Part shown: positions 13,149-25,440 of the stretch, one piece after another
How the letters are laid out: every line of letters starts with the position of its first letter
How positions within the stretch are numbered: position 1 is the stretch's first letter
DNA from: a virus
Direction: 5' to 3' (one strand)
IMG/VR virus record: IMGVR_UViG_3300005617_000260
Coordinates: 1-25,440 of that record
DNA: 25,440 nucleotides
Notes under the pieces: model-generated
Seen by the model: the letters and a program-made list of their open reading frames with translations, nothing else
Told to the model about the DNA's origin: nothing
Database searches by the model: none
Translations under genes and position numbers: made by a program

Positions 13149-13774
13149 CAGGCCACCAGGACCATGTCGCGGCAGTACGGGCCGATCATCATCATGGCCA
13201 TCGGGTTCGCGCGCACGCGGATCGCGCCCCACTCGGACATGCCGATCACGCCATAGGGGGCATCCTTGAGCTTGAACGTCTCCTCGGCCACGGTCAGGCA
13301 AGCTTCCTTCACGCCCGCCGGTACCGCTGTCCAGCCCCATTGGGCGGTCACCTGTAGCGGCGCCCGCCGAGGCGTATAGCCGTAGCGCACCGGGAAGTAG
13401 CGCGACGCGACTGCCCTGATGCGATAGTTGGGCCAGCCCGACTCGCCGTTGACCACGCCATTGAGCGGCTCAAGCTGATAGTCAGCAGCCACCCAGGTCG
13501 TCTCATAGACGCCGTCGTTGTCGCCGTCCGTAGCGATGACCAGGCCCGTAGTGGTGTAGAAGTCGTCCGGCTCGGCAAGGCAGGTGTCGCACGGGTAGAA
13601 GACCCGCGCCGTGGCCGAGGTCGCCTGATTGAACTGGCGACGGCACACGTGCTCAATCCCGCGCGAGGCGACCGCCAGAGCGTTGGTCATGGCCGCGTCG
13701 TCGCCTGATCCCGCCACCCCGCCGAGCCTGACCTTCAGCTCGGCGAGGGTCGCGTAGCTGTCACCCAAAGCCAT
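13148..13774 (-). CDS. head-tail adaptor (connector) protein
   Basis: The 208-residue product starts MALGDSYATLAELKVRLG, the typical first helix of gp6/gp15-like adaptors, has helices around GIEHVCRRQFNQ, then a beta insertion, and a late helix near VKEACLTVAEETFKLKD. It should bind the portal ring at the capsid vertex. The C-terminal part is Met-rich (RANPMAMMMIG). ATG 13774 overlaps the end of the epimerase gene by 14 bases, which ties the glycosylation cassette to the morphogenesis operon. Confidence 0.82.
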   Translation of the reverse strand: MALGDSYATLAELKVRLGGVAGSGDDAAMTNALAVASRGIEHVCRRQFNQATSATARVFYPCDTCLAEPDDFYTTTGLVIATDGDNDGVYETTWVAADYQLEPLNGVVNGESGWPNYRIRAVASRYFPVRYGYTPRRAPLQVTAQWGWTAVPAGVKEACLTVAEETFKLKDAPYGVIGMSEWGAIRVRANPMAMMMIGPYCRDMVLVA

Positions 13775-14591
13775 CGCTCACCACCTCCAGCGCCCGCTTG
13801 ACGCCTTGCTCCAGCGACACCTGGGGGACGTAGTAGCGATGCAGCAGCGCCGGATCGCCGACGCGGTATGGCATGCCCGCGGGCTTGTCCATCCGGGGCG
13901 AGAACCGTGGCGTGTAGCCGGCGTGGGCGCAGGCCATCTCGGCCAGCTGCCGCATCGACGTGCCGATGCCAGTGCACAGGCTCACCGGCTCATCGACGGC
14001 CGATTGCGCGACCGCGAGCGCACCCGCCACCACATCGTCGACGTGGATCCAGTCGCGCACCTGGGTTCCGTCGCCCCAGATCTCGAACGGATCCTCATGG
14101 CGGCGTGCCCGCTCGATTAGCGCGCGGAACGGGAAGTCTGGCGACTGGTCTTCGCCGTAACCCGAATACGGCCGCACGACAGTGACCTTGACCCCCGTAG
14201 CACGGGCGTTGCTCGCAAGTCGTTCCCCGGTCAGCTTGGTCGCCGCGTAATCGTCGACAGGACCGTCGGCCGCGGCGCACGACGACAGGTAGAGCACGTG
14301 CGGCTGTCCTGTGCGGATCGCCCAGTCGAACATGGCCGCATCGAGCATCACGTTGTACGGGTGCATTCCGGGATCGCCGTCGATCGCCGCGCGGTGCGGT
14401 GATCTCGCGGCGGCGTGAACGATCAGGTCGTAACGCTGGATACAGTCGCGCCGGATTTCCTGGCCGAAGATGAACATCGCGTCCAGCCCCAGAGTGATGT
14501 CGGCGCGCGACACGACCCAGCCTTGTCGGGCCAGCTCGGCGGTGAAGTGACGTCCAACGAAACCGGCCGCTCCTGTTACCAGCGCCCTCAT
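13761..14591 (-). CDS. NAD-dependent nucleotide-sugar epimerase/dehydratase
   Basis: The 276-residue extended short-chain dehydrogenase has the Rossmann motif GAAGFVG at 7-13, the LSS strand end at 102-104, the catalytic YAATK (Y115, K119), and the family motifs VRPYSGYGEDQ and VRDWIHVDDV. It most likely makes or modifies a sugar nucleotide (4-epimerisation, dehydration or reduction cannot be told apart). ATG 14591 overlaps the preceding stop as ATGA; the long open frame upstream is a shadow of the methyltransferase gene. As the last gene of the cassette it would supply an unusual sugar for the neighbouring glycosyltransferases. Confidence 0.88.
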   Translation of the reverse strand: MRALVTGAAGFVGRHFTAELARQGWVVSRADITLGLDAMFIFGQEIRRDCIQRYDLIVHAAARSPHRAAIDGDPGMHPYNVMLDAAMFDWAIRTGQPHVLYLSSCAAADGPVDDYAATKLTGERLASNARATGVKVTVVRPYSGYGEDQSPDFPFRALIERARRHEDPFEIWGDGTQVRDWIHVDDVVAGALAVAQSAVDEPVSLCTGIGTSMRQLAEMACAHAGYTPRFSPRMDKPAGMPYRVGDPALLHRYYVPQVSLEQGVKRALEVVSDGFG

Positions 14592-15130
14592 CGGCAGGCC
14601 CACACGCCGAAGCAATACGACGGGGCAACCTCGGCGTATTCGGCCGGCTCGAAACCGGCCGCCGCAAGCATTGCCTCGACGGCCTCGCGATCCCACGCCC
14701 AGTAATGCTCGGGGTTCTCGTCGGACCACGCGTCGACCGGTGTCGACAGCAGGAGCAGTTTGGTCTTGGCGCGGATCGCGGCGAGAACGCTGACGGGATC
14801 GTCGAGGTGCTCGATCGTCTCGCAGCACACGAACAGATCCACGTCCTCGATCCCGGCGACGGTCTGCTCGATCGGCCCGGTGAGTTCGTGGCCGGGCGCG
14901 AAATCGCCGAACAGGCGCCGGTTCGCGGGCAGCGCCGACAGGATCGCCCCGTTGCCGCACGAAAGGTCCGCAGCTGATCCGACACCCGTACCGGCCAAGC
15001 GGCATCCGACCGCGACAGTGACGTCCACCCGCGCCTGATGGTCGGGCCATTGGCGGTGGTCGTGTGGCTGCGCGTACAGCCGCGCCAGCTCGGCGTCCGA
15101 CCATGCCGGGCGCAGACGAACCCGCTTCAC
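14588..15130 (-). CDS. class I SAM-dependent methyltransferase
   Basis: The 180-residue product has the SAM-binding motif DLSCGNGAIL at 55-64 and the post-motif FVCCETIEHLDDP at 100-112, followed by LLLLSTPVD. It ends with an aromatic-rich region (EHYWAWDREAVEAML, AGFEPAEYA) and starts with HDHRQWPDHQARVD, a region seen in phage sugar or small-molecule methyltransferases. The start is GTG 15130, overlapping the previous stop as GTGA. It resembles the C-terminal domain of the upstream fusion gene and is probably its paralogue. O-methylation of a virion sugar is the likely role; protein or DNA methylation is less likely from this context. Confidence 0.85.
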   Translation of the reverse strand: MKRVRLRPAWSDAELARLYAQPHDHRQWPDHQARVDVTVAVGCRLAGTGVGSAADLSCGNGAILSALPANRRLFGDFAPGHELTGPIEQTVAGIEDVDLFVCCETIEHLDDPVSVLAAIRAKTKLLLLSTPVDAWSDENPEHYWAWDREAVEAMLAAAGFEPAEYAEVAPSYCFGVWACR

Positions 15131-16386
15131 GACTTGACCGCCATCAGCACCTGGAACCTGTTGACCCGCCGCGATGCCTTCACCGTGAACCCGGCCTGCT
15201 CGACCAAGGTCCGGTAGCCGGTTTCATCCCAAGCAAAGGTGTGGAACTCATACGCGCGGCCAGGGCGTTCGTCTGCGGGCGACGAGCACACCAGCACGCG
15301 GCAGTTCTCAGCGATCCGGGCGACGAAACCGTGCGGGTCGAGGAGATGCTCGAGCATTTCGGTGCACACCGCAATATCCGCCCAGTCGATGTCACCAGCA
15401 ACGGCATCGCCGAGTCGGACGTCAACTCCGCGTTCCTTCGCGGCCTCGATATTGGCAGGCATCAGGTCGTATCCCCACGCCCGCAGACCCGGCCCAAGCA
15501 GGGACAGCAGGCCACCATCACCGGCACCGAGGTCTACGACGGTGCGAAGCCTGTTGCTGAACGCCGCCTGCGCAACGTATGCCGCGGCGAGCATGAGGCG
15601 TTCTCGGTGCCCATCCTGTTCCAGGTGTGGGGCGTGCTCGCGCCCGGCGTACCACTCGGGTTTGGTGTAGTCCGGCACGGTGCCTTCGTCGAACAGGCGC
15701 CACTCGTGCGTTCCGTCCAGGCGCCAGGCGTCGTCAGGATGGCGCAGCCGGCCGAGTGCGTCGAAGGCCTGGCCCACGAATTCGAATCCGGCGGCGGCGG
15801 GATGCCGAGGCACGGGAATCCGCTGCGTCGTCTCGCCGGGGAACAGGGCGAACTCGTCGTGGATGAGCGCCTTGTCGCGGGCGATCGGGTAGATGTGGTC
15901 ACGTAGCCAGAGCTGGTCGACGAACCGGTGATCGCTATCCGGCATCGACGGCAGCAGCGGGGCGATGAGGCTTGCGCCTTGCGCGGTGCATCCCCACAGG
16001 CCTGCCATCATCGGCATGCGGTGCTCGGGGTGATCGCGCATGATGTGGAACGGCTCGTCGGAGGCTTCCCATTGGGCCACGGCGGCGGCCTCGCGCGCGG
16101 ATATGCGTGAGTCGCAGTCGCGGAACAGGTGCGCCTCGATGGCCGGGTCGGTGAGCGTTTCGAAGCGCCACATCAGCGCCGACCAGTCCTGGGCCCGGTC
16201 CGAACAGTCGACCACCTGCGCACCGCAGTCCTCAAGCTTCTCGGCGGTGGTGGCCATTGCCGTCGGGCCGCAGTAGAACCTGCACGTCCAGCCGGGAAGG
16301 TGTTGCCTGGCCAGCTGCGCGTTGGCCAAGGCGCCAGCCGTGTATGTGGGGTCGGTGCCGAACAAGCTGAAGGAGATGACCTTCAA
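15127..16386 (-). CDS. glycosyltransferase-methyltransferase fusion protein
   Basis: The 419-residue product has an N-terminal GT-A-type domain at about 1-200: MKVISFSLFG, PGWTCRFYCG, and a DXD motif D90-C91-D92 in LFRDCDSR for metal and sugar nucleotide. A linker with basic and aromatic residues follows. Residues 265-419 are a class I SAM methyltransferase: VVDLGAGDGG at 283-292, CTEMLEHLLDP at 341-351, and FHTFAWDETGYRTLVEQAGF at 381-400. The start is TTG 16386, overlapping the previous stop as TTGA; no other start keeps the conserved first strand. The fusion suggests that sugar transfer and methylation are coupled. Confidence 0.82.
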   Translation of the reverse strand: MKVISFSLFGTDPTYTAGALANAQLARQHLPGWTCRFYCGPTAMATTAEKLEDCGAQVVDCSDRAQDWSALMWRFETLTDPAIEAHLFRDCDSRISAREAAAVAQWEASDEPFHIMRDHPEHRMPMMAGLWGCTAQGASLIAPLLPSMPDSDHRFVDQLWLRDHIYPIARDKALIHDEFALFPGETTQRIPVPRHPAAAGFEFVGQAFDALGRLRHPDDAWRLDGTHEWRLFDEGTVPDYTKPEWYAGREHAPHLEQDGHRERLMLAAAYVAQAAFSNRLRTVVDLGAGDGGLLSLLGPGLRAWGYDLMPANIEAAKERGVDVRLGDAVAGDIDWADIAVCTEMLEHLLDPHGFVARIAENCRVLVCSSPADERPGRAYEFHTFAWDETGYRTLVEQAGFTVKASRRVNRFQVLMAVKS

Positions 16387-17093
16387 CTGGCCATCACCTC
16401 GCGCAGCGCCTTGACCTTGGCGACATCGGACTCGAAGCCGTCTCGGCCGTACAGGTATGCCTCGTAGGCCTTGCGGTCGTGTTCGCCGACCTCGGGCGCG
16501 TTGACCCGCTGATAGTTCTCGTCCCATGGCGCCTTACCCGCGATCGGGTGGCGGTGTTCGACGATGACGTCGGGCAGGTAGCGCAGGCAGTCGGCGGCCT
16601 TACCCAGGTCGCGCCAGAAGTTGTCGACATAGAGGTGCTTGAGACTCGGCGGCGCCATGAAGCCCAGCGCGCGCACGATGTCGCTGGTCATTGCGCATTG
16701 CGTCGGGAGGCGGTGGCCTTGGAGGAGGTCGTTGCCGTAGACGATGCCCGTGCCGAGCTCATGAAGGGCGTCGAGGTAGGCCTGGTCCCAGCCCTTCGTA
16801 CGGGGCATGTGGTCGTCGCCCATGAAGCCGAGCGCAAATGGCGGAGCATCCGCCATGGCGCGCGAAACAGCGGAGGCATTAAGCGCCAGGACCATCGTCG
16901 CTGGAGCCCCGCCACTTTCGATCGTGTTCACCGGCGGCCCAGCGAGCGCCCAATACTCCTCCCGGCGGGGATCGTCCTCATCGATCGCGAACACCAGCTG
17001 CGCTGTCGTTCGGGTCGCCCCGAACGCCTGGATCAGAGTGGCCGCGGCCTCGGGGCGACCGCGCGAGGGAACGATGACGACGAGCTCACTCAT
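16383..17093 (-). CDS. GT-A glycosyltransferase
   Basis: The 236-residue product opens with the GT2-like strand VVIVPSRGRP and has FAIDEDDP at 36-42 and GDDHMP at 92-97 as metal and nucleotide-sugar site. A late helix-strand part contains DNFWRDLGK. No signal peptide or membrane segment is present, so it acts in the cytoplasm, on protein subunits or on a carrier. ATG 17093 lies eight bases inside the preceding gene and its stop overlaps the next TTG, so translation is probably coupled through the cassette. Confidence 0.85.
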   Translation of the reverse strand: MSELVVIVPSRGRPEAAATLIQAFGATRTTAQLVFAIDEDDPRREEYWALAGPPVNTIESGGAPATMVLALNASAVSRAMADAPPFALGFMGDDHMPRTKGWDQAYLDALHELGTGIVYGNDLLQGHRLPTQCAMTSDIVRALGFMAPPSLKHLYVDNFWRDLGKAADCLRYLPDVIVEHRHPIAGKAPWDENYQRVNAPEVGEHDRKAYEAYLYGRDGFESDVAKVKALREVMAS

Positions 17094-17289
17094 CCGGGCT
17101 TGCCTTCGTCGCCTTCTTCGCTGGCGCCTGCTTGGCCTGCGCGGGAGGCGTGATCGGCTCGAACAACTCCGGCCGCGCCAGCACCACCGGGTGATCCGAA
17201 TCGATCGGGGTACCCGTCTCCAGCAGGATCGACGACCCGTCGCCGTAACCCACCCAACCGTCGATCAACGGACGCGACTGGCCGCTCAT
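17086..17289 (-). CDS. small virion-associated protein of unknown function
   Basis: The 67-residue product has a short beta-type core (PLIDGWVGYGDGSSILLETG), DADDP-like residues, and VVLARPELFEPI, followed by a Lys/Ala/Pro tail. The core resembles small proteins that actinophages encode close to the capsid gene, whose role is not known to me. ATG 17289 overlaps the previous stop as ATGA; the much longer open frame in which it lies is a shadow upstream of that point. It sits between two glycosyltransferases, so it might be an acceptor, a capsid decoration or a cofactor. Confidence 0.65.
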   Translation of the reverse strand: MSGQSRPLIDGWVGYGDGSSILLETGTPIDSDHPVVLARPELFEPITPPAQAKQAPAKKATKASPDE

Positions 17290-18047
17290 AGCCCAACCCC
17301 CACATGCGAGGGCGCGAGCAGACCCCGCGCCAGGAAGTAGCTCTCCATCGTCAGCAGCCGATCCTTGACGTGGCCGATCTGCACCGCCGTGTTCACATAT
17401 ACCGGGATCTGCAACAAGCCCGCACGCCAGCAGAAGGCGATGTCCTCCGACACCGGCTTGCCGTCGTGCTCCAGCTCCTGGAACCACGGGAACGCGTCGT
17501 TGAAGCCGACCTTGCCCGGGCGGTTGGGATGCTCGAAGTCGCGCATCCGCTCCAGCGCCGACTTGTGAATCAGCAGGCACGCCGCGCCAGTCGCGACCAC
17601 CTGGAACATGGTGTCCACGGGCCACTCGTCGAAGCGGACCACGTCGAGATTGGCCGGGTCGTCGGCGTCGCCCATCAGGCCGTACATCGTCGGGACGATG
17701 TCGCCGCGGTCGTCTAGGCCGAAGCACAGCGCGCCGACGATCGGGGCCTTCTCGGGATCGGCATTCTCCAGCAGCCGCTCCACCGTGTCGGGAGCGAAGA
17801 CCATGTCCGAATCGACCATGAACAGCCAGTCGGCTTTGCCGAACGCCAGGAACTTGCGCACGACCTCGTTGCGCGGCCCGGACAGGTTCGCGCCCGCCCG
17901 GAACGGCAGCCGGCCACCGCCCTCGGTGATCCTTCGATGGGTGGCGAAGTCGTACATCAGCAGGTCCGCCAGGCATTCCATGAAATCGCCATGGACCAGC
18001 GAGGGCCGCAGGTATGCGATGACAACCTTTTCTTGCGGGTCTCTCAA
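17286..18047 (-). CDS. GT-A glycosyltransferase directly after the capsid gene
   Basis: The 253-residue product has PRNEVVRKFL and the DXD motif D79-S80-D81 in FMVDSDMVF, with the flanking pattern (ADWLFMVDSD) typical of phage and bacterial GT-A enzymes. EDIAFCWRAGLLQIPVYVNT is a conserved later stretch, and the His in QIGHVKDR is a likely metal ligand. The start is TTG 18047: GGGAGG lies six bases upstream and no ATG or GTG fits better. That ribosome site is exactly complementary to the loop of the hairpin just upstream, so translation may be controlled. Likely role: first sugar on capsid or tail proteins. Confidence 0.85.
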   Translation of the reverse strand: MRDPQEKVVIAYLRPSLVHGDFMECLADLLMYDFATHRRITEGGGRLPFRAGANLSGPRNEVVRKFLAFGKADWLFMVDSDMVFAPDTVERLLENADPEKAPIVGALCFGLDDRGDIVPTMYGLMGDADDPANLDVVRFDEWPVDTMFQVVATGAACLLIHKSALERMRDFEHPNRPGKVGFNDAFPWFQELEHDGKPVSEDIAFCWRAGLLQIPVYVNTAVQIGHVKDRLLTMESYFLARGLLAPSHVGVGL

Positions 18048-18148: not shown

Positions 18149-19633
18149 TCAGGCCAGCGCGGTAGACGCCGCCACCTGGTTTAGCTGCAACAATCTAAAA
18201 GCGTCTGCATTGACTACATCCGCCCCTACGCGCCAGTGGGCATACCAGCCGGCTTGCCCAGTCGGGGCCGCACCTGAGGCGGTGGTCTTGACCAGCGGGT
18301 CATAGATCACCGACATACCGATGCGGTCGACGATGTAGTACTGGCTGAAGTCTCCGGCCAGCAGGATGTTGGTGCCGTTGCCGACAACCGAGGTCATCGA
18401 CGCCGACTTCATCGCCGGGGCGCCCAGCAGAAGCGGGGGCTGGCCGACATTCAGGTTGGCCCAGAAGCCGCCACCACCGGAGGTGTCGAACTGGCGCACC
18501 TTCGAGTAGATCGCCTTGTGCGCCAGCCAGCCCAGGTTCTGCTCCTGGCGTGGGTTGACCGCGTTGGACGTGTTGTGCACGTCCGCGACCACGAAGGCGC
18601 CCGTCGTCACCGAGGTGACGATGCTGGCCGTGACCGCGGCGACAGCCGCCATCACACCACGCGGGATCGTGGCGCCAGTGTTGGCGGTCGCGAACGCGGC
18701 CTCCTCCAGCCGGGTTTTCGCGTCGCCGAGCAGCCGGCCCAGTTCGTTGGAGAAGCCGGTGTCTTCGAGCACCTCGTACGATCCGGTGAGCCACGCGTCG
18801 GCCTTCTTGGCTACGATGGTCGGCTGGACGAAGGTCGGCGAGTCGTCGGTGGTCGCCGTCGCCTCACCGGTCCACTGCGCGGTGATCCCGGCGGAGGTGA
18901 CACCTTCCCACTGCTTGACCGCGATCGTCTTGACCGTGGACAGGCTGCGGATGGTGCCGCCATAGACGCCCGCGTTGGTGATGATGATCGTCGGGTCGAG
19001 GAAGTGGGGGACGAGCACACCACCGTTGCCCGCGGTCAGGCTCATCGCGGTACGCAGCAGCTCGGGAACGTACTTGCCCATCGAGCGCACGTACTCCATG
19101 AACTGGCTGCGGTATTCGGGTGAGCCGGTTAGCACGATGTGGCGTGCAATGAGCGGGGTGTTGATGTCGTCGTCGCCGTCGAGCAGCAGGTGCAGGCGCT
19201 GCTTGGTGTCGTCGCTGACCCAGCGGGGCACCTTGTCGACGCTGCGCTTGGCCCGCTCGATGGTGGAGTCGGCGTCGAAGTTGACGACCTCGGCGCGTTT
19301 GGCGCTGCGCATCAGTTCGCGCAGTTCCGAGTTGTCTTCGAACGGGTCGACGTTGTTGCGCTTGACCTCGACCTTGCTACGGTCCCAGGCGGCCGCGCCG
19401 TCGCCGTTCTCGGTGTTGCCGTGTTCGAGTGCGGCCCGCTTGACCTCGTCGACGCGACGTTCGCGTGCGATCGCCTTGTCGTAGTCGACCTTCTTGGCGT
19501 CCCACTCTTCGAGGCAGGCGTCGGCGCGGGCGAGGTCTTCCTCGCCGGGATCTTCCATCTCCTCGATGACTTTGACTTCTGCGCGGAGGACTTCCATCTC
19601 CTCGGCGAGAAGCTCACTTCGCTTGCGTGGCAT
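18149..19633 (-). CDS. HK97-fold major capsid protein with N-terminal scaffold domain
   Basis: The 494-residue product has residues 1-75 as a highly charged helix (LLAEEMEVLRAEVKVIEEME), the expected delta or scaffold domain removed by the protease. A linker to about 150 is followed by an HK97-fold core: LTAGNGGVLVPHFLDPT at the start, then SSYEVLED-like TGSYEVLEDTG and RLEEAAFATANTGA of the spine region, and a C-terminal part with NGTNILLAGDFSQYYIVDR. ATG 19633 follows GAGGAG at ten bases, which overlaps the protease stop; longer frames upstream are shadows. The gene is followed by an RNA hairpin that probably marks its transcript end or a processing point. Confidence 0.93.
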   Translation of the reverse strand: MPRKRSELLAEEMEVLRAEVKVIEEMEDPGEEDLARADACLEEWDAKKVDYDKAIARERRVDEVKRAALEHGNTENGDGAAAWDRSKVEVKRNNVDPFEDNSELRELMRSAKRAEVVNFDADSTIERAKRSVDKVPRWVSDDTKQRLHLLLDGDDDINTPLIARHIVLTGSPEYRSQFMEYVRSMGKYVPELLRTAMSLTAGNGGVLVPHFLDPTIIITNAGVYGGTIRSLSTVKTIAVKQWEGVTSAGITAQWTGEATATTDDSPTFVQPTIVAKKADAWLTGSYEVLEDTGFSNELGRLLGDAKTRLEEAAFATANTGATIPRGVMAAVAAVTASIVTSVTTGAFVVADVHNTSNAVNPRQEQNLGWLAHKAIYSKVRQFDTSGGGGFWANLNVGQPPLLLGAPAMKSASMTSVVGNGTNILLAGDFSQYYIVDRIGMSVIYDPLVKTTASGAAPTGQAGWYAHWRVGADVVNADAFRLLQLNQVAASTALA

Positions 19634-19647
19634 GTTGTTGCAGCTCC

Positions 19648-20481
19648 TCACAGTCTTCTGGCTAGTAGTTCCGCACGGAGGCGGATCTTGCGCTGCCGAA
19701 GTGACTGCGTCTGCTGCGGGTCCTCGGCGCCGGGTCCCCGTTGGGGACTGGCAAGGATGTGCGCCATCTCCGAATCCCATCCCTGGGTTTGCGAGAGGGC
19801 GCGGATGAGCTCTTCGCGGCCGTCTGCGTCCAGGCGGGCGAAGTCTTCGGCCAGCTCGGCGGCTGACCGTACGGCGGTGATTTCCGCCGTCGTGTACCAC
19901 GGTGTCGGCGTCGGTCCGTAGTTGCGCAGACCCATTTCCATCCGCCTGATTTTGGGTAGTGGATATCCTGGCCGGGCTTTGCCGGGCCGGGAGCTTGGGT
20001 TGGAGCGGTAGATGGGGCCCTCATACGAGTAGGCCCGGATGTCACCGTTCTTGATCGACGCCAGAACGCTGTCGGTGAATTCGCCCTCGTTGTATCGGCT
20101 CACGGTGAGCAGGCCGCGTTTGTCTGCGCGGACTTCTTGGGGGTGGCCGATGGGGACGGTGGGCAGGCCGCCGGATTTTCCGCGTGCGTCGAAGCCGTGG
20201 TTGTACAGAACGAGTGCCCGTTTGGCGGCGCCGGAGTTGATGACGGCATTGAAGGCGACGGGGTCGTTGGATTCGATGTAGTCGCCGTGCTGGTCGTGGA
20301 TCTCCTGCGGCACGTTGAAGACGGCCGCGTACGCCTCGACTGTGCGCCCGTCGGGGTAGCCCTTGGCACGGGTGAGGATTTCGATGCCTTCCAGCTCGTA
20401 CACGCGCCGGTAGGTCAGCGGCGTTTGTGTGGGCTGGTCCGCAGGAGGGTTTTTGACCGCCACGGCATTCGTATCAGTCAC
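19648..20481 (-). CDS. HK97-type prohead maturation protease
   Basis: The 277-residue serine protease belongs to the prohead protease family, which trims the capsid scaffold domain. The likely catalytic His is H95 in LYNHGFD and the likely Ser is S152 in AYSYEG, with the usual spacing. The N-terminal strand region has YAAVFNVPQEIHDQHGDYIE. The C-terminal 80 residues are helical and charged. The start is GTG 20481, with AGGAGG nine bases upstream. It lies directly before the capsid gene as in most siphophages, and may also process the portal and the composite Nudix/ART protein. Confidence 0.9.
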   Translation of the reverse strand: MTDTNAVAVKNPPADQPTQTPLTYRRVYELEGIEILTRAKGYPDGRTVEAYAAVFNVPQEIHDQHGDYIESNDPVAFNAVINSGAAKRALVLYNHGFDARGKSGGLPTVPIGHPQEVRADKRGLLTVSRYNEGEFTDSVLASIKNGDIRAYSYEGPIYRSNPSSRPGKARPGYPLPKIRRMEMGLRNYGPTPTPWYTTAEITAVRSAAELAEDFARLDADGREELIRALSQTQGWDSEMAHILASPQRGPGAEDPQQTQSLRQRKIRLRAELLARRL

Positions 20482-20599: not shown

Positions 20600-20824
20600 T
20601 CAGTCGAATTCTTCGGGTACATCCATCGGGTCGTCCCACGCCTGGCGCGGGAGCTGCTCGAGCTCCTGGATGCGGGTCTTGATTTCCGCAGGCAGCCGAT
20701 CCCAAGTTCCGGCCTTCTCGTAGGCGTCACGGATCGCGATCCGATCGTCCGGGTGCACGTCGCGGGTGCCGAGCAGTTCGACCAGACGTTCATACAGGTC
20801 GGCTTGCGGCGTCGGTGCGGTCAC
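20600..20824 (-). CDS. small acidic protein between the ART/Nudix gene and the protease
   Basis: The 74-residue soluble, helical product is strongly acidic at its end (WDDPMDVPEEFD). It contains DLYERLVELLG, RIAIRDAYEKAGTWDRLPAE and KTRIQELEQLP. The start is GTG 20824, overlapping the stop of the large upstream gene as GTGA, so it is made in step with it. Small proteins with a similar layout occur at this place in actinophage head modules; their role is not known to me. Being coupled to an ART gene, an immunity role is possible, but a scaffold or portal-associated role is equally so. Confidence 0.65.
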   Translation of the reverse strand: MTAPTPQADLYERLVELLGTRDVHPDDRIAIRDAYEKAGTWDRLPAEIKTRIQELEQLPRQAWDDPMDVPEEFD

Positions 20825-23784
20825 TGCTCCTCCAACACGATCAGAACTGATCGATTGAGGACCACATAGTTCGGGTTGTTGTGGCTTGTCGCCGAATGGC
20901 CCGGCGGGATCCGGACCATGTCGTGGCCCCTGGCTGCGGCATAGCGGCCCTCATCCCACAGCGTAGCAACCTCGTGCGATTTACCCTTAGCCTTCGAGTA
21001 GCGCTGGCCGTGGGCCTGGGCCTGCCGCTCAATGGTCTTGTGCTCGGCGATCTTTGCCGACTTGGGGACAAGTGCCCGTAGCACCGAGCCTTTGGTGTTA
21101 TCGGAATATCCCACGGCGATGGACCGGTCTGTGGCGAAGTAATAGCCGTTGCCGTAGATGCCCGTGCCGTAATAGGCCGATCCCGTGCGGAACTCTTCGT
21201 GGATCTGCGCGGCCGTCTTGGTGCGAGTCACGGCACTGCCCCGCGTGGGGCCGGTGTATGAGCCGGCACCCTTGACGCCGCGATACACCTCGATGTAATC
21301 GCCGCTGGCCTTGAGCTTGTCGTACTCGCCCTTGGTGACAACCGTTGGCACATCGTCGAAGCCTTGCATGGCGGCGATGGCGGCGAGACGATCATCGGCC
21401 GTCTTTCCGGCGTACAGCTTGCGGGCCTTGGTGACGTCTTGACGCAGCTTGTCGCGCGAGGAGTCGTCGCCAATCAGGTCGCGGCCAAGTGATGGCTTGT
21501 GTGTCTTCGCCGTCGGCGCGTTGACCGTCGGTGTGCCGGTGAGGCGCTTTGGCCGCACGTGAACCAGTCCCGGGCGCCCCACCGTCGTGGGCGCTACGTG
21601 GGTCGGCGGGAACAGGGTGAGCACGTTCTGCTGGAGTTGCCCACCGGCGAGTGGTGCGAGCAGCTTTCCGCTTGTTTGGAGTTTGTCGATTTCCGCGCGG
21701 GTCATCCATTTGGCGTCGGAGGTTTCCGCTCTTGCCTCTGGCGTGGACAGGTCGGGTTTGAGTTGACGATCTACGGTTGCGGCGATACTGACGTATGCCC
21801 ATGGGACTGTGCCGCCGTGAAGTCCGGGTACTTGAACTCCCGGAACCTCTTTCGTGTGGGTGCCGTGGACGCGCGCGTTGTCGAGGTCGTTGTTTTTGAA
21901 GCCGAGTTCCTCGGCTACTTCCCGTGTCGCGCCTTGATAGAAGTCTTCCTTTTCGTCTTTGGCGCCGCCTGGGAATTGCCATTTGCCTGGGTCTGAGATT
22001 CCCGGCCCGCGCTGGATCATGAGGAAGCGTTCTTCGCCGTTGGCGTCGACGTGGCGCAGCATCAGCCCCGCCGCGCCGTATTGGCCCCAGGGGCCGCTGG
22101 TTCCGCTCGCGGTGCGCGTCCAGCCGTCTCCGCTTTTTCCTGTCTTGCCGTGGGGAAGCCGCGACAGCAGGCCGGGCGTTCCGGCGGGGTCGGCGACGCG
22201 GGTCTGCGATGCGGTGACGTTCGGTGGCGGCAGAACGGCTTGCTTGGGAATCTGGCCGTGGGCGGTGCCCGGGGGCGTGAATCGGTCGATAAGCTTGGAC
22301 GCCTTGGTGGCGTTGGGGCCGCTTTTCGACGTGGTCTCGATGTAGGCCAGATCGGCGAGCACGCCCTGCTTCTCGGCTGGGCCGAGCTGATCGAAGTGGC
22401 TGCGCCGAAGACTTCCATACACTTCGAGCTGGCGGGCGATGGTGTGGCCCTTGGGGTCCCTGCCGTAGAGAATGTCTAGTGCGCCTTGGATTTCCGGGCC
22501 ATGTGGGCTGCCTTGAGGCAGGACCGGACCAGAGGCCTTGGTCGTTTTCCCCGGCGGATTCGGCATTGCTGCGACCAGTGCGGCAATCGCCGCTGACTTG
22601 CTCGTGTGCTGAGAGTTGTTTATCGGCACACCGTTTGGTCCATCGGCGATAATCGTGTAGCCGAAATCGTGAACGGTCCCGATCGGGGTGCCGTTCTCGC
22701 TAATCTCCCACGAGCGACGTGCTGGACCGAATATGCCACGGCGTCCATGCACGGGCAGCTCGGTCAAGTTGAGACCGGCAAGTCCCGGCCCTGAGACCTT
22801 TCGTGGCATGTTCGCTTGAACTAGGGCGTCAACCGCCGCCTTTTCAGTTTGATAACCGTTGCCGACGCCCGGGTTGACGCGGACAACGTTGCCGAGCGGC
22901 GTGTTGCCCGTCCCGTGTGGAAAGTAGCCGCCGCCCGAGGCGTGCACGACGATTCCGATGTCATTCCCGTTGACCTGAACATTGATCGTCGTTTGATTAT
23001 TGGGCCATGGCGTGCCCGGCGACGTTGTGATGATAGGCGGACCCGCCTTGGGAAGCGTGAACGTGCCTGAAGCGTTGCCCCCCTGCCTAGTGGTTAGATC
23101 CGCCAGTAGCTTCGCCGCGATCGAGTCGCGGTCTTCGCCACGTTTGAGTGTGATACCGCGCGTCTTCGCGGCCTTCATCAGCTGGTCACGCGAATACCCG
23201 TCAAACGGGTGAGTCTTGCCCGTGCCGCCGGCCTGATGCAGCCGGATCGATGCCTTGAGCCGGTCGACGATGTCCAGGAAATGGCCCGTCGCGGGGTCGC
23301 GCGGATGCTTTGCCGGGTCCCAGACGGCCGCACGCCCGAGATTGGCCTCATCATCCAGCTCCGCCATGGCCTGCAATAGGGCGGCCGTCTCGTCGTCAAG
23401 CTCGCCGACCGGATCGTCGTCGATCTCGGAACGCCGCCCGTGCTCCTGGCCCGGCCAGACACCCAGCGCCTCATGGTGGTATTCGGCGCACAAACCCTTC
23501 GGGTCGCGCACGTACTTGCCCAGTTCAGCCACGCAGCGGTCGAAGTCGCCGGGAACACCCCAGCCGATCTTCACCGCGCCTTCACCCTTGGTCCAATACC
23601 GGCGAAGCTTATGGTCGGAGATGTTGCGGGCCAGTCGATCCATTTCGGCGCGAGCTTCTCTGGCACGCTTAGCGCGATCATCTTCGGCGGCGGGACCAGC
23701 GGCCGAGAATGGACCAGAGAGATCCCAATCCGGATTCAGTGTGGATATCCGCTCGATGGCCTGCTGCGTCGTCAGTGCGTCCAT
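20821..23784 (-). CDS. composite virion protein with Nudix hydrolase and C-terminal ART domains
   Basis: The 987-residue product is modular. Residues 58-115 hold RRYWTKGEGAVKIGWG and GDFDRCVAELGKYV, a block known to me from actinophage head proteins. Residues 154-170 carry a WDPAKHPRDPATGHF linker. Residues 195-230 resemble a SAP/HeH motif (YSRDQLMKAAKTRGITL). Two related modules lie at 267-326 and 358-407. A Nudix domain at about 569-705 has the complete box G607-x5-E613-x7-R621-E622-x2-E625-E626-L-G-F. The ART domain at 780-987 has VYRG (R835), GIYGNGYYFAT (875-885, PARP-like) and NYVVLNRSVLIV at the end. ATG 23784 is coupled to the portal stop (TGATG). Placed right after the portal, it is probably packaged and ejected; targets are unknown. 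Confidence 0.85.
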   Translation of the reverse strand: MDALTTQQAIERISTLNPDWDLSGPFSAAGPAAEDDRAKRAREARAEMDRLARNISDHKLRRYWTKGEGAVKIGWGVPGDFDRCVAELGKYVRDPKGLCAEYHHEALGVWPGQEHGRRSEIDDDPVGELDDETAALLQAMAELDDEANLGRAAVWDPAKHPRDPATGHFLDIVDRLKASIRLHQAGGTGKTHPFDGYSRDQLMKAAKTRGITLKRGEDRDSIAAKLLADLTTRQGGNASGTFTLPKAGPPIITTSPGTPWPNNQTTINVQVNGNDIGIVVHASGGGYFPHGTGNTPLGNVVRVNPGVGNGYQTEKAAVDALVQANMPRKVSGPGLAGLNLTELPVHGRRGIFGPARRSWEISENGTPIGTVHDFGYTIIADGPNGVPINNSQHTSKSAAIAALVAAMPNPPGKTTKASGPVLPQGSPHGPEIQGALDILYGRDPKGHTIARQLEVYGSLRRSHFDQLGPAEKQGVLADLAYIETTSKSGPNATKASKLIDRFTPPGTAHGQIPKQAVLPPPNVTASQTRVADPAGTPGLLSRLPHGKTGKSGDGWTRTASGTSGPWGQYGAAGLMLRHVDANGEERFLMIQRGPGISDPGKWQFPGGAKDEKEDFYQGATREVAEELGFKNNDLDNARVHGTHTKEVPGVQVPGLHGGTVPWAYVSIAATVDRQLKPDLSTPEARAETSDAKWMTRAEIDKLQTSGKLLAPLAGGQLQQNVLTLFPPTHVAPTTVGRPGLVHVRPKRLTGTPTVNAPTAKTHKPSLGRDLIGDDSSRDKLRQDVTKARKLYAGKTADDRLAAIAAMQGFDDVPTVVTKGEYDKLKASGDYIEVYRGVKGAGSYTGPTRGSAVTRTKTAAQIHEEFRTGSAYYGTGIYGNGYYFATDRSIAVGYSDNTKGSVLRALVPKSAKIAEHKTIERQAQAHGQRYSKAKGKSHEVATLWDEGRYAAARGHDMVRIPPGHSATSHNNPNYVVLNRSVLIVLEEQ

Positions 23785-25440
23785 CACGAGAGGACCTGCT
23801 CAATGTCTACGACAGTAACGGTGACCGTTCCTGGCAACGGCGCGTTCGAGAATTGCTCCCTGCGAACACCGAGCACCTTAAAGCGGCCTGTCGACAACCA
23901 CTCCTGGTTGCCTTTGTAGTCATCGTGCGTGCTGTCGCGGACGTCGAGCGAACGCGATCCTGGACGCAGGCGAAGCATGACCGATCCGGGTCCACCGAAT
24001 CCCGCATACACGAGGCCGATTCGTTCTTTTTGAGTGAACGAACTTAGGCCAAGGTCTATGTCCTGACCCCTTTTTGGCACCTTGTCGCGCGGAATCCTAT
24101 AAAGACCGCGGTAGAGGAGCGGCGCCGACGGTGGCGCTGCGGCTGCCGTTCGGAGCAGAAGAGCGCCGTCGGTGTCGGCATTGGGTTCGTGATGGGCAGC
24201 CTTTGCCTCTTCGATGATCGTCTGCTTCGCGCTCGTGCCGTCCGGCGCTGTCCAAGCTTGGATGGAGCGATGCAACCGAGCTTCAGTCGGATCCTTTTGA
24301 TCCAAGCTCCCGCCGCCATTCAACTTCGCGGCCATTTGTCCCTCGCGTCCCACCGCCCGCGCGGGGCGGGGCGTCGTTTCGGCGTGAGGCCTCTTCGGGG
24401 CCTTTGGCCGACTCGGTCGCGGCGACAAGGAGGAGGGCTTCACGTCCGGCTTGTCCTTTGCGGCCGCGATCGCCTTCTTGTAGTCCGCCGACCCTTTCTT
24501 CATGAACTTGCCGCCGAGCGGATGCCCCTTGGGGTAGCGCGGGTGCAGATCGGGCGTGAACGCGCGCAGCGCATGCAGAAGGCGGTATCGAGAAGTGTCG
24601 GCACGGCTCAAGCGCGGCCGGACCGGCGGGGTCTGGCTACGCGCCGCCGGAGCGGCGGGATCTTTTGGGACCACATCACCGGAAGGCTGCCCATCCGGCC
24701 CCGGCGGCTGCAACTGCACCGAATACAAGCCGCTGTGCTGGCCCAGCAGCGCCGTCAAATCGTTGGTCTGAATGAACAACGTCGCCGAATCGGGGTCCAT
24801 GCCACCGTCGACCAGGGTGCGCCAGGCGGAGGCCTGCGCCTGCTGGATATTCGCGACATCCAGCTGATCGTCATGTAGGAACGGGATGTCACGGGCGTCG
24901 TACCACAGGCGCGACCCGTTAGGCACCGGCACCAGCGGCTCCAGCGAACCTGCGGCGTTCTGCCACAGATGCCGGAACGTCGTATCCACCGTGTTGCGCT
25001 TCGCGGCGGTGTAGTTCCCAGCATTGAGCGACGAACCCTGCATGCCCTCCGACAGGCCCACAATCACCGGGTGCACGCCCGCGGCCGCGGCGAGCCGAGT
25101 CTCGCCCGCGCCCTGCGTCACCTTGAAATCCAGCTGCTGCATGTTCGCGCCGATGACCGTCACATCAGCGCCGCCGCCCGTATACAGGGTCTTGTAAGCG
25201 TTGTCGACACCACGGTGGCTGGAGTCCATCTTCTCTACGAACGACGCGAACTGCTCCGGCGTGATCTCCTTCGGTAGCGACACCGCGACGTTGGGAGTGG
25301 CGGCGTTCTCGAAAAACTTCAGCTTGTGCTTGGTCGCGCTGGTGTCGGCCTGAAGTTCACGGATCACCGGCGTGAGCCACGACATGCCGCGGTAAATCGC
25401 CACGGGGTCGGGCATCGGCGCGAAGTGCGAGTATTCCCCG
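23784..25440 (-). CDS. portal protein with C-terminal ADP-ribosyltransferase domain (5' part off window)
   Basis: The C-terminal 551 residues are present and the start lies beyond the right edge. Numbered from the in-window methionine at 25415, residues 1-235 are portal core: HFAPMPDPVAIYRGMSWLTP around residue 1, then KLKFFENAATPNVAVSLP and VHPVIVGLSEGMQGSSLN. Residues 275-305 contain RYPKGHPLGGKF, a short linker motif. Residues 365-543 form an ART fold of the R-S-E type: LLYRGLYR (R436), LGLSSFTQ (S458-T461) and NQEWLSTGRFKV (E505). The residue two before the catalytic Glu is Asn, not the usual Glu or Gln. The portal part is certain by context; the ART call rests on the three motifs in order. 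Confidence 0.85.
   Translation of the reverse strand, partial: GEYSHFAPMPDPVAIYRGMSWLTPVIRELQADTSATKHKLKFFENAATPNVAVSLPKEITPEQFASFVEKMDSSHRGVDNAYKTLYTGGGADVTVIGANMQQLDFKVTQGAGETRLAAAAGVHPVIVGLSEGMQGSSLNAGNYTAAKRNTVDTTFRHLWQNAAGSLEPLVPVPNGSRLWYDARDIPFLHDDQLDVANIQQAQASAWRTLVDGGMDPDSATLFIQTNDLTALLGQHSGLYSVQLQPPGPDGQPSGDVVPKDPAAPAARSQTPPVRPRLSRADTSRYRLLHALRAFTPDLHPRYPKGHPLGGKFMKKGSADYKKAIAAAKDKPDVKPSSLSPRPSRPKAPKRPHAETTPRPARAVGREGQMAAKLNGGGSLDQKDPTEARLHRSIQAWTAPDGTSAKQTIIEEAKAAHHEPNADTDGALLLRTAAAAPPSAPLLYRGLYRIPRDKVPKRGQDIDLGLSSFTQKERIGLVYAGFGGPGSVMLRLRPGSRSLDVRDSTHDDYKGNQEWLSTGRFKVLGVRREQFSNAPLPGTVTVTVVDIEQVLS

What the first reader, a model, noticed from the sequence alone, without database searches (positions are those of the whole stretch)
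20821..25440. Two different ADP-ribosyltransferases and a Nudix hydrolase in consecutive virion genes
The portal ends in an R-S-E type ART (LLYRG, LSSFT, NQEWL) and the next, translationally coupled gene ends in a PARP-like ART (GIYGNGYYFAT, YVVLNRS) after a complete Nudix box. Both genes lie in the head module, so both enzymes may be carried in the capsid and ejected with DNA. ART enzymes modify host targets with NAD; Nudix enzymes cleave NAD, ADP-ribose or NAD-capped RNA. Phage T4 ejects ART enzymes and encodes Nudix proteins, but separately. A built-in ART-Nudix-ART set in head proteins would be a new arrangement for host takeover or for countering NAD-depleting defences.
Basis: partly seen in the sequence, partly recalled or inferred. 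Interest (0 to 1): 0.85.

Follow-up and report, generated by a model that had tools for sequence, protein, structure and literature searches.

The report
Head-borne ADP-ribosyltransferases with a likely antidote

Summary
The portal ends in an R-S-E-type ADP-ribosyltransferase (ART1, supported by motifs only). The next gene, coupled by a GTGA overlap, carries a complete Nudix domain (Pfam 2.4e-14) and ends in a PARP/PolyVal-like ART (ART2). Related portals, up to 78% identical, mostly end without such a tail, so ART1 is an add-on.

Searches for relatives added three things. (1) Nudix-ART2 is a mobile cassette in at least 25 other viral contigs; ART2 is fused to three kinds of portal, to MuF, or encoded just after them. 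(2) ART2 is followed, usually by a 4-nt overlap, by a 57-79 aa, mostly acidic, unannotated protein ("ASP"): in 27 of 28 ART2 contigs, in no ART2-free related portal locus of 80, and all 21 loci found with ASP have ART2. In the window ASP is 20600-20824 (-). (3) R-S-E ART plus ART2 in coupled head genes recurs in two unrelated contigs.

Best reading: head-delivered effectors of the MuF polymorphic-toxin kind, here tethered to the portal, with ASP the likely immunity protein. ARTs and Nudix domains fused to portal or MuF are already published; the ART2-ASP pair and the tandem were not found in the searched literature. Packaging, catalysis and ASP function are untested.

The parts
24666..25440 (-). 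Portal protein core (5' end beyond the window)
   Evidence: Pfam Phage_portal 1.6e-17; 230 bits to a solved portal, 9lw9; 49-57% identity to Gordonia and Rhodococcus phage portals
24504..24545 (-). Junction motif HPRYPKGHPLGGKF between portal and ART1
   Evidence: this motif class occurs 18 times in 298,836 residues of ORFs against 4 in shuffled, mostly at effector junctions of head proteins
23787..24350 (-). ART1, R-S-E-type ADP-ribosyltransferase tail of the portal (R436, S458/S459, N503-x-E505)
   Evidence: three-motif pattern; tail absent from nearly all related portals; no profile or structure support
23784..23787 (-). GTGA overlap of portal stop and next start (translational coupling)
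   Evidence: equivalent 4-nt overlaps in L015 and L036
20821..23787 (-). 988-aa head-module effector protein
23431..23646 (-). 'YWT.GEGA' domain (phrog_6439, residues 48-119), shared with capsid protease/MuF fusion proteins of actinophages
   Evidence: PHROG 4.6e-27; 171 phage records
23278..23307 (-). Junction motif HPRDPATGHF
23095..23199 (-). SAP/Rho-N-like stretch (residues 197-231), also between portal/MuF and effector in L018 and L031
   Evidence: sequence comparison; Rho_N or SAP called by Pfam only in L043 and PSS2
21682..22041 (-). Nudix hydrolase domain (residues 583-702), complete Nudix box at 21898-21969
   Evidence: Pfam 2.4e-14; Foldseek 6uuf RenU 2.9e-9
20824..21540 (-). ART2, PARP/ART-PolyVal-like ADP-ribosyltransferase (R836, Y883; PARP Glu position is N973)
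20600..20824 (-). ASP, 74-aa acidic protein directly after ART2 (GTGA overlap, GGAGGAG upstream): candidate immunity protein
   Evidence: no Pfam or PHROG family
19648..20481 (-). Prohead protease (S78)
   Evidence: Pfam 2.5e-5
18149..19900 (-). HK97-type major capsid protein
   Evidence: Pfam 1.2e-38

Best explanation
This is a portal-tethered, head-delivered effector cassette of the polymorphic-toxin kind. The portal carries ART1 at its C-terminus. The next gene makes a head-associated protein whose tip is Nudix plus ART2, and the third gene, ASP, makes a small protein that binds and restrains ART2 in the cell where heads are built. ART2, and probably the Nudix domain and ART1, enter the next cell with the DNA; free of ASP, ART2 modifies host targets with NAD. 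The Nudix domain would then hydrolyse ADP-ribose, NAD derivatives or other nucleotide substrates. Shown here: domain identities (ART1 by motif only), gene coupling, add-on nature, mobility between portal types, and the strict ART2-ASP association. Inferred: catalysis, packaging and ejection, and ASP as immunity protein.
For: (1) ASP directly adjoins ART2 in 27 of 28 ART2 contigs and all 21 loci found by searching with ASP contain ART2. It is absent from 80 related portal loci that lack ART2. Some adjacent ART2-ASP pairs have no Nudix (L031, L036, L037, L041, L042, L045), so ASP tracks ART2 and not the Nudix domain. (2) Gene order, size and coupling match effector-immunity pairs, e.g. the MuF-ART Bxa with its inhibitor Bsi (PMC11699363) and the small ORF after 89% of MuF toxin genes (PMC5576092). 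(3) Head link: ART2 is fused to HK97-type (L037), Mu-type (L018) and phrog_776 (L019) portals, fused to MuF (L022, L043), or lies in the gene after them. (4) Add-on: 76 of 80 related portals, up to 78% identical, have tails under 150 aa; the window's is 293 aa. (5) Exchange: Nudix-ART2 is 74% identical to L008 while capsids are unrelated by BLAST.
Against: No experiment. ASP neutralisation is untested and it has no known family. The three cultured phages with distant ART2 relatives (GodonK, PSS2, SP-15) have no detectable ASP. Ten of twelve longer ART2 contigs have neither a tyrosine integrase nor a serine recombinase, whereas MuF toxins were reported only in temperate phages; these contigs may be incomplete. 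ART1 has no small partner of its own. ART2 lacks the PARP catalytic Glu. ART1 rests on motifs.
Confidence: 0.5

Rival explanations
1. Host takeover or anti-defence cargo without toxicity. The ARTs reprogramme host proteins as T4 Alt does, the Nudix domain removes ADP-ribose or NAD-type signals, and ASP is a chaperone or loading adaptor that keeps ART2 inactive or unfolded for packaging.
For: Same placement and domains. Published surveys propose early-infection roles for head-fused ARTs and Nudix domains (PMC9503650). Most longer ART2 contigs lack an integrase. MuF-VIP2 ARTs occur in lytic Microbacterium phages.
Against: A dedicated small partner found only beside ART2, in effector-then-immunity order, is the usual sign of self-protection. 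A general head chaperone should also occur without ART2, and none was seen in 80 relatives.
Confidence: 0.3
2. The proteins are made late and act inside the infected cell, for example on competing phages or host machinery, and are not ejected.
For: Position in late genes is compatible with either; packaging was not tested.
Against: Direct fusion of ART2 or ART1 to portal and MuF proteins in several families places the enzyme in the head.
Confidence: 0.1
3. ART1 is not an ADP-ribosyltransferase; only ART2 and Nudix are real, and the tail is an unrelated add-on domain like those in L048 and L049.
For: No Pfam, PDB or hhalign support and a failed model. N503 replaces the usual E/Q of the ExE motif.
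Against: The three motifs in order, with R-S-E spacing, were not matched in 22.6 million shuffled residues; the local alignment with the L015 R-S-E ART is in register over the SSF and QE motifs.
Confidence: 0.15
4. The domains are catalytically dead and serve as structural or binding modules.
For: ART2 has Asn where PARPs have the catalytic Glu.
Against: The Nudix box is complete and its R-E-x-x-E-E core is kept in the relatives; R and Tyr of ART2 are invariant in 20+ relatives. By general knowledge, mono-ART PARPs also lack the Glu.
Confidence: 0.07

Closest known systems
MuF polymorphic toxins (Jamet 2017, PMC5576092) and Bxa with Bsi/BAH (Alexei 2024, PMC11699363)
   Same: ART at the C-terminus of a head-module protein, followed by a small ORF; in Bxa the small protein Bsi binds and inhibits the ART
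   Different: The window has no MuF domain; the anchors are the portal and a YWT-domain protein. It has two ARTs of different kinds, a Nudix domain beside ART2, and an immunity candidate in no Pfam or PHROG family
Head-fused ARTs and Nudix domains (Iyer, Burroughs and Aravind 2022, PMC9503650)
   Same: ARTs and Nudix domains fused to portal, MuF or head protease, proposed to be ejected
   Different: No Nudix-ART fusion with a paired small gene, and no tandem of two ART kinds, was found in the passages read; its figures were not readable here
Phage polyvalent proteins and ART-PolyVal (Iyer 2017, PMC5512222; PF18760)
   Same: ART2 scores weakly on ART-PolyVal and PARP profiles; multidomain head cargo
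   Different: Motif 1 is R instead of H, and the Glu position is N, Q or other; below the Pfam cut-off
MuF-VIP2 ART of Microbacterium phages (e.g. Rasovi gp5, Percival gp4; PMC7302621)
   Same: R-S-E ART on a head protein after the portal
   Different: No second ART; no ART2 or ASP was seen by annotation in the following genes of Rasovi
Phage T4 Alt and NudE
   Same: Virion ART and a Nudix enzyme
   Different: Separate genes, no portal fusion, no partner gene (general knowledge)

Membership tests
Nudix hydrolase | Complete GX5EX7REUXEEXGU box in the Nudix fold | tested here: met
PARP / ART-PolyVal superfamily (ART2) | ART fold with motif 1 and G-x-G-x-YF motif | tested here: met
   AlphaFold domain mostly pLDDT above 90 with ART order of elements; PolyVal ART among viral structure hits; weak profile hits
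PARP / ART-PolyVal superfamily (ART2) | H-Y-E catalytic triad | tested here: not met
   R836-Y883-N973; H replaced by R, E not conserved in the family
R-S-E ART, VIP2/Alt type (ART1) | R, STS and ExE motifs in order | tested here: met
   with N instead of E/Q at the first ExE position
R-S-E ART, VIP2/Alt type (ART1) | Profile or fold match to R-S-E ARTs | tested here: inconclusive
MuF polymorphic toxin | MuF domain on the toxin | tested here: not met
   No PF04233 in the window; MuF is present in 18 of 31 ART2 contigs, in L022 in the same protein
MuF polymorphic toxin | Small immunity ORF directly downstream | tested here: met
   ASP position and co-occurrence; neutralisation not tested
MuF polymorphic toxin | Toxicity neutralised by the partner | not testable with these tools
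   -
Virion-ejected effector | Protein present in virions and transferred to the cell | not testable with these tools
   Only fusion and neighbourhood evidence

The most novel reading that the evidence does not exclude
ART2-ASP is a widespread, previously undescribed toxin-antidote pair carried in phage heads and exchanged between unrelated portals. Together with ART1 and Nudix it forms a coordinated two-ART, NAD-based infection programme, used largely by non-temperate phages that need the antidote to protect their own production cell.
Probability: 0.25. Interest if true: 0.8.

Novelty: new variant of a known kind. Interest (0 to 1): 0.62.

Why it matters
It extends head-delivered polymorphic toxins from MuF to portal proteins. 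It adds an ART subfamily with a matched small partner family that no library names, and it shows a recurring pairing of two different ART chemistries in coupled head genes. Because the partner is short and strictly paired, the idea is directly testable: co-express ART2 with and without ASP. It would also give a clean case for asking why a phage needs an antidote to its own cargo.

Tried and rejected
Close relatives of the portal ART1 region in viral contigs and of either ART or the Nudix region in cultured phages: none for the ARTs, only weak Nudix hits. First genome scan with the ART2 alignment: nothing; the second gave one distant Pseudonocardia locus without a convincing ASP. ASP in 397 genomes of that phylum: none, without a positive control. 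ART2 in plasmids: none. Single-sequence AlphaFold of ART1 failed, so no fold search was made with it. hhalign of ART1 against four R-S-E ARTs: not significant. ASP alignment A7 was too divergent for a scan, so the closer subset A8 was used. A guessed accession for Microbacterium phage Schubert returned an unrelated phage and was not used. Considered and rejected: no small ORF between ART2 and the protease (one is there, coupled); ASP as an ordinary head protein (absent where ART2 is absent); association of ASP with the Nudix domain (ASP occurs beside ART2 proteins without Nudix).

Full report
What is in the window. G000 is a 25.4-kb IMG/VR virus fragment. On the minus strand its head module reads: portal (cut at the window edge), a 988-aa gene, S78 prohead protease, HK97 capsid. 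The portal core is 49-57% identical to Gordonia (Nymphadoravirus) and Rhodococcus (REQ1 group) phage portals. In the examples examined, Polly and Madraxi, the portal is 472-504 aa long and is followed directly by the protease or by a protease-capsid fusion. So the 293-aa portal tail and the whole next gene are additions.

Check of the domains. The Nudix domain is certain. ART2 is supported by weak hits to two ART profiles, by a confident domain model from 23 aligned sequences, by a PolyVal ART among the viral structure hits, and by invariant RG and GNGxY motifs; it has R instead of the PARP His and no conserved Glu. ART1 is supported by its three R-S-E motifs in order, matched by nothing in 22.6 million shuffled residues, but not by profiles or a model. 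I treat it as likely, not proven. The pattern was drafted with this tail in view, so the chance figure is optimistic.

The tail is an accessory. Of 80 viral contigs with the nearest portals, four have tails longer than 200 aa, and the L047 portal, 78% identical to the window's, has a 6-aa tail. The long tails (L048, L049, L087, L109, and L031) carry different contents but share junction motifs, HPR..GG(K/R)F or HLPG(K/R)H(D/N)Q..HG and variants, or SAP-like stretches. Both window proteins carry the HPR motif. This is the polymorphic-tip pattern.

Nudix-ART2 is a mobile cassette. A degenerate pattern and then an alignment scan recovered 28 contigs with ART2. Seventeen of them, and eight more found through ASP, also carry the Nudix domain just before it. 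The placements differ: fused to a phrog_776 portal (L019, L020), to a Mu-type portal (L018/L045), or to an HK97 portal (L037); fused to MuF (L022, L043); or in a separate large gene after portal and MuF (L021, L023, L028, L033, L035). Against L008, Nudix-ART2 is 74% identical while the capsids show no similarity by BLAST.

The missed gene. Directly after ART2, with a GTGA overlap and a GGAGGAG sequence upstream, lies a 74-aa ORF at 20600-20824. Searching with the window sequence alone finds it after ART2 in 18 further contigs, and just before ART2 in L031, at E 3.1e-8 or better. A profile finds it in 27 of the 28 ART2 contigs and in none of the 80 portal relatives. A profile built only from the Nudix-ART2 group and L031 still hits the exact position in L036 (3e-9), L041 (3e-7) and L037 (9e-7). 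The reverse search found 21 loci, all with ART2 adjoining. Substitutions fall mostly on third codon positions (616, 465, 1203), as expected for a real gene. No Pfam or PHROG family matches. I call it ASP.

Two ART kinds in tandem. L036 has MuF with a C-terminal R-S-E ART (PF03496, 3.9e-15) and then, with a 4-nt overlap, a 2H-phosphoesterase-like plus ART2 gene and ASP. L015 has MuF with an R-S-E ART (3.8e-28) and then a coupled ART2 gene; the next protein begins with a weak ASP-like stretch (0.059). Among 32 records only three matched PF03496, and two of these are the adjacent cases. With the window this makes three coupled tandems on different head scaffolds. The partner domain beside ART2 is Nudix in the window and 2H-like in L036; both are enzyme types that published work places in the ADP-ribose network (PMC9503650).

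Reading. [quoted passage not shown] By analogy ASP is most likely the ART2 immunity protein and the cassette is head-delivered. A chaperone or loading role for ASP, with a non-lethal takeover function, is the main rival. Ten of twelve longer ART2 contigs show neither a tyrosine integrase nor a serine recombinase, which speaks mildly against a purely lysogeny-linked role, but the contigs may be incomplete.

Limits. No packaging or activity data exist. ART1 is motif-based. ASP was not detected beside distant ART2 relatives in the cultured phages GodonK, PSS2 and SP-15. Literature was searched only in open PMC papers, figures could not be read, and absence there does not prove novelty.

Noticed in passing
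window 23431-23646 (-); L002 3956-4183; L003 2965-3171; L004: The YWT.GEGA.K domain (phrog_6439, unknown function) occurs inside capsid protease/MuF fusion proteins and portal-effector proteins, and alone as 68-75 aa ORFs in Gordonia phages and an M. abscessus prophage.
   Followed up: partly
window 24504-24545, 23278-23307; L015, L019, L022, L023, L031, L045, L048: Short motifs HPR..GG(K/R)F and HLPG(K/R)H(D/N)Q..HG sit mostly at junctions between structural head parts and effector domains; possible processing or docking signal.
   Followed up: partly
L009 2144-5131; L011 2894-5935: Arthrobacter phage Sonali gp3 is portal-Nudix-MuF in one protein; Pseudanabaena phage Pam4 has MuF-Nudix.
   Followed up: partly
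L152 1524-6023: Cyanophage PSS2 minor head protein is MuF, Zeta toxin, weak Rho_N/SAP-like stretch and an ART2-like domain in one 1499-aa protein.
   Followed up: partly
L151 2752-7447: Cultured Gordonia phage GodonK gp67, directly after the portal, has an HPRGADGRW motif and an ART2-like domain (1.1e-20), followed by two small acidic genes not detectably related to ASP; a convenient experimental system.
   Followed up: partly
window 13761-18047 (-): Between the capsid and connector genes lie glycosyltransferase-like, methyltransferase and sugar-epimerase-like genes; possible capsid or glycan modification set.
   Followed up: no
L031 4638-10988: One contig has a portal tail with SAP-like and ParB-like parts, then ASP before an ART2 that is N-terminal in its gene: the order is inverted relative to all others.
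   Followed up: no
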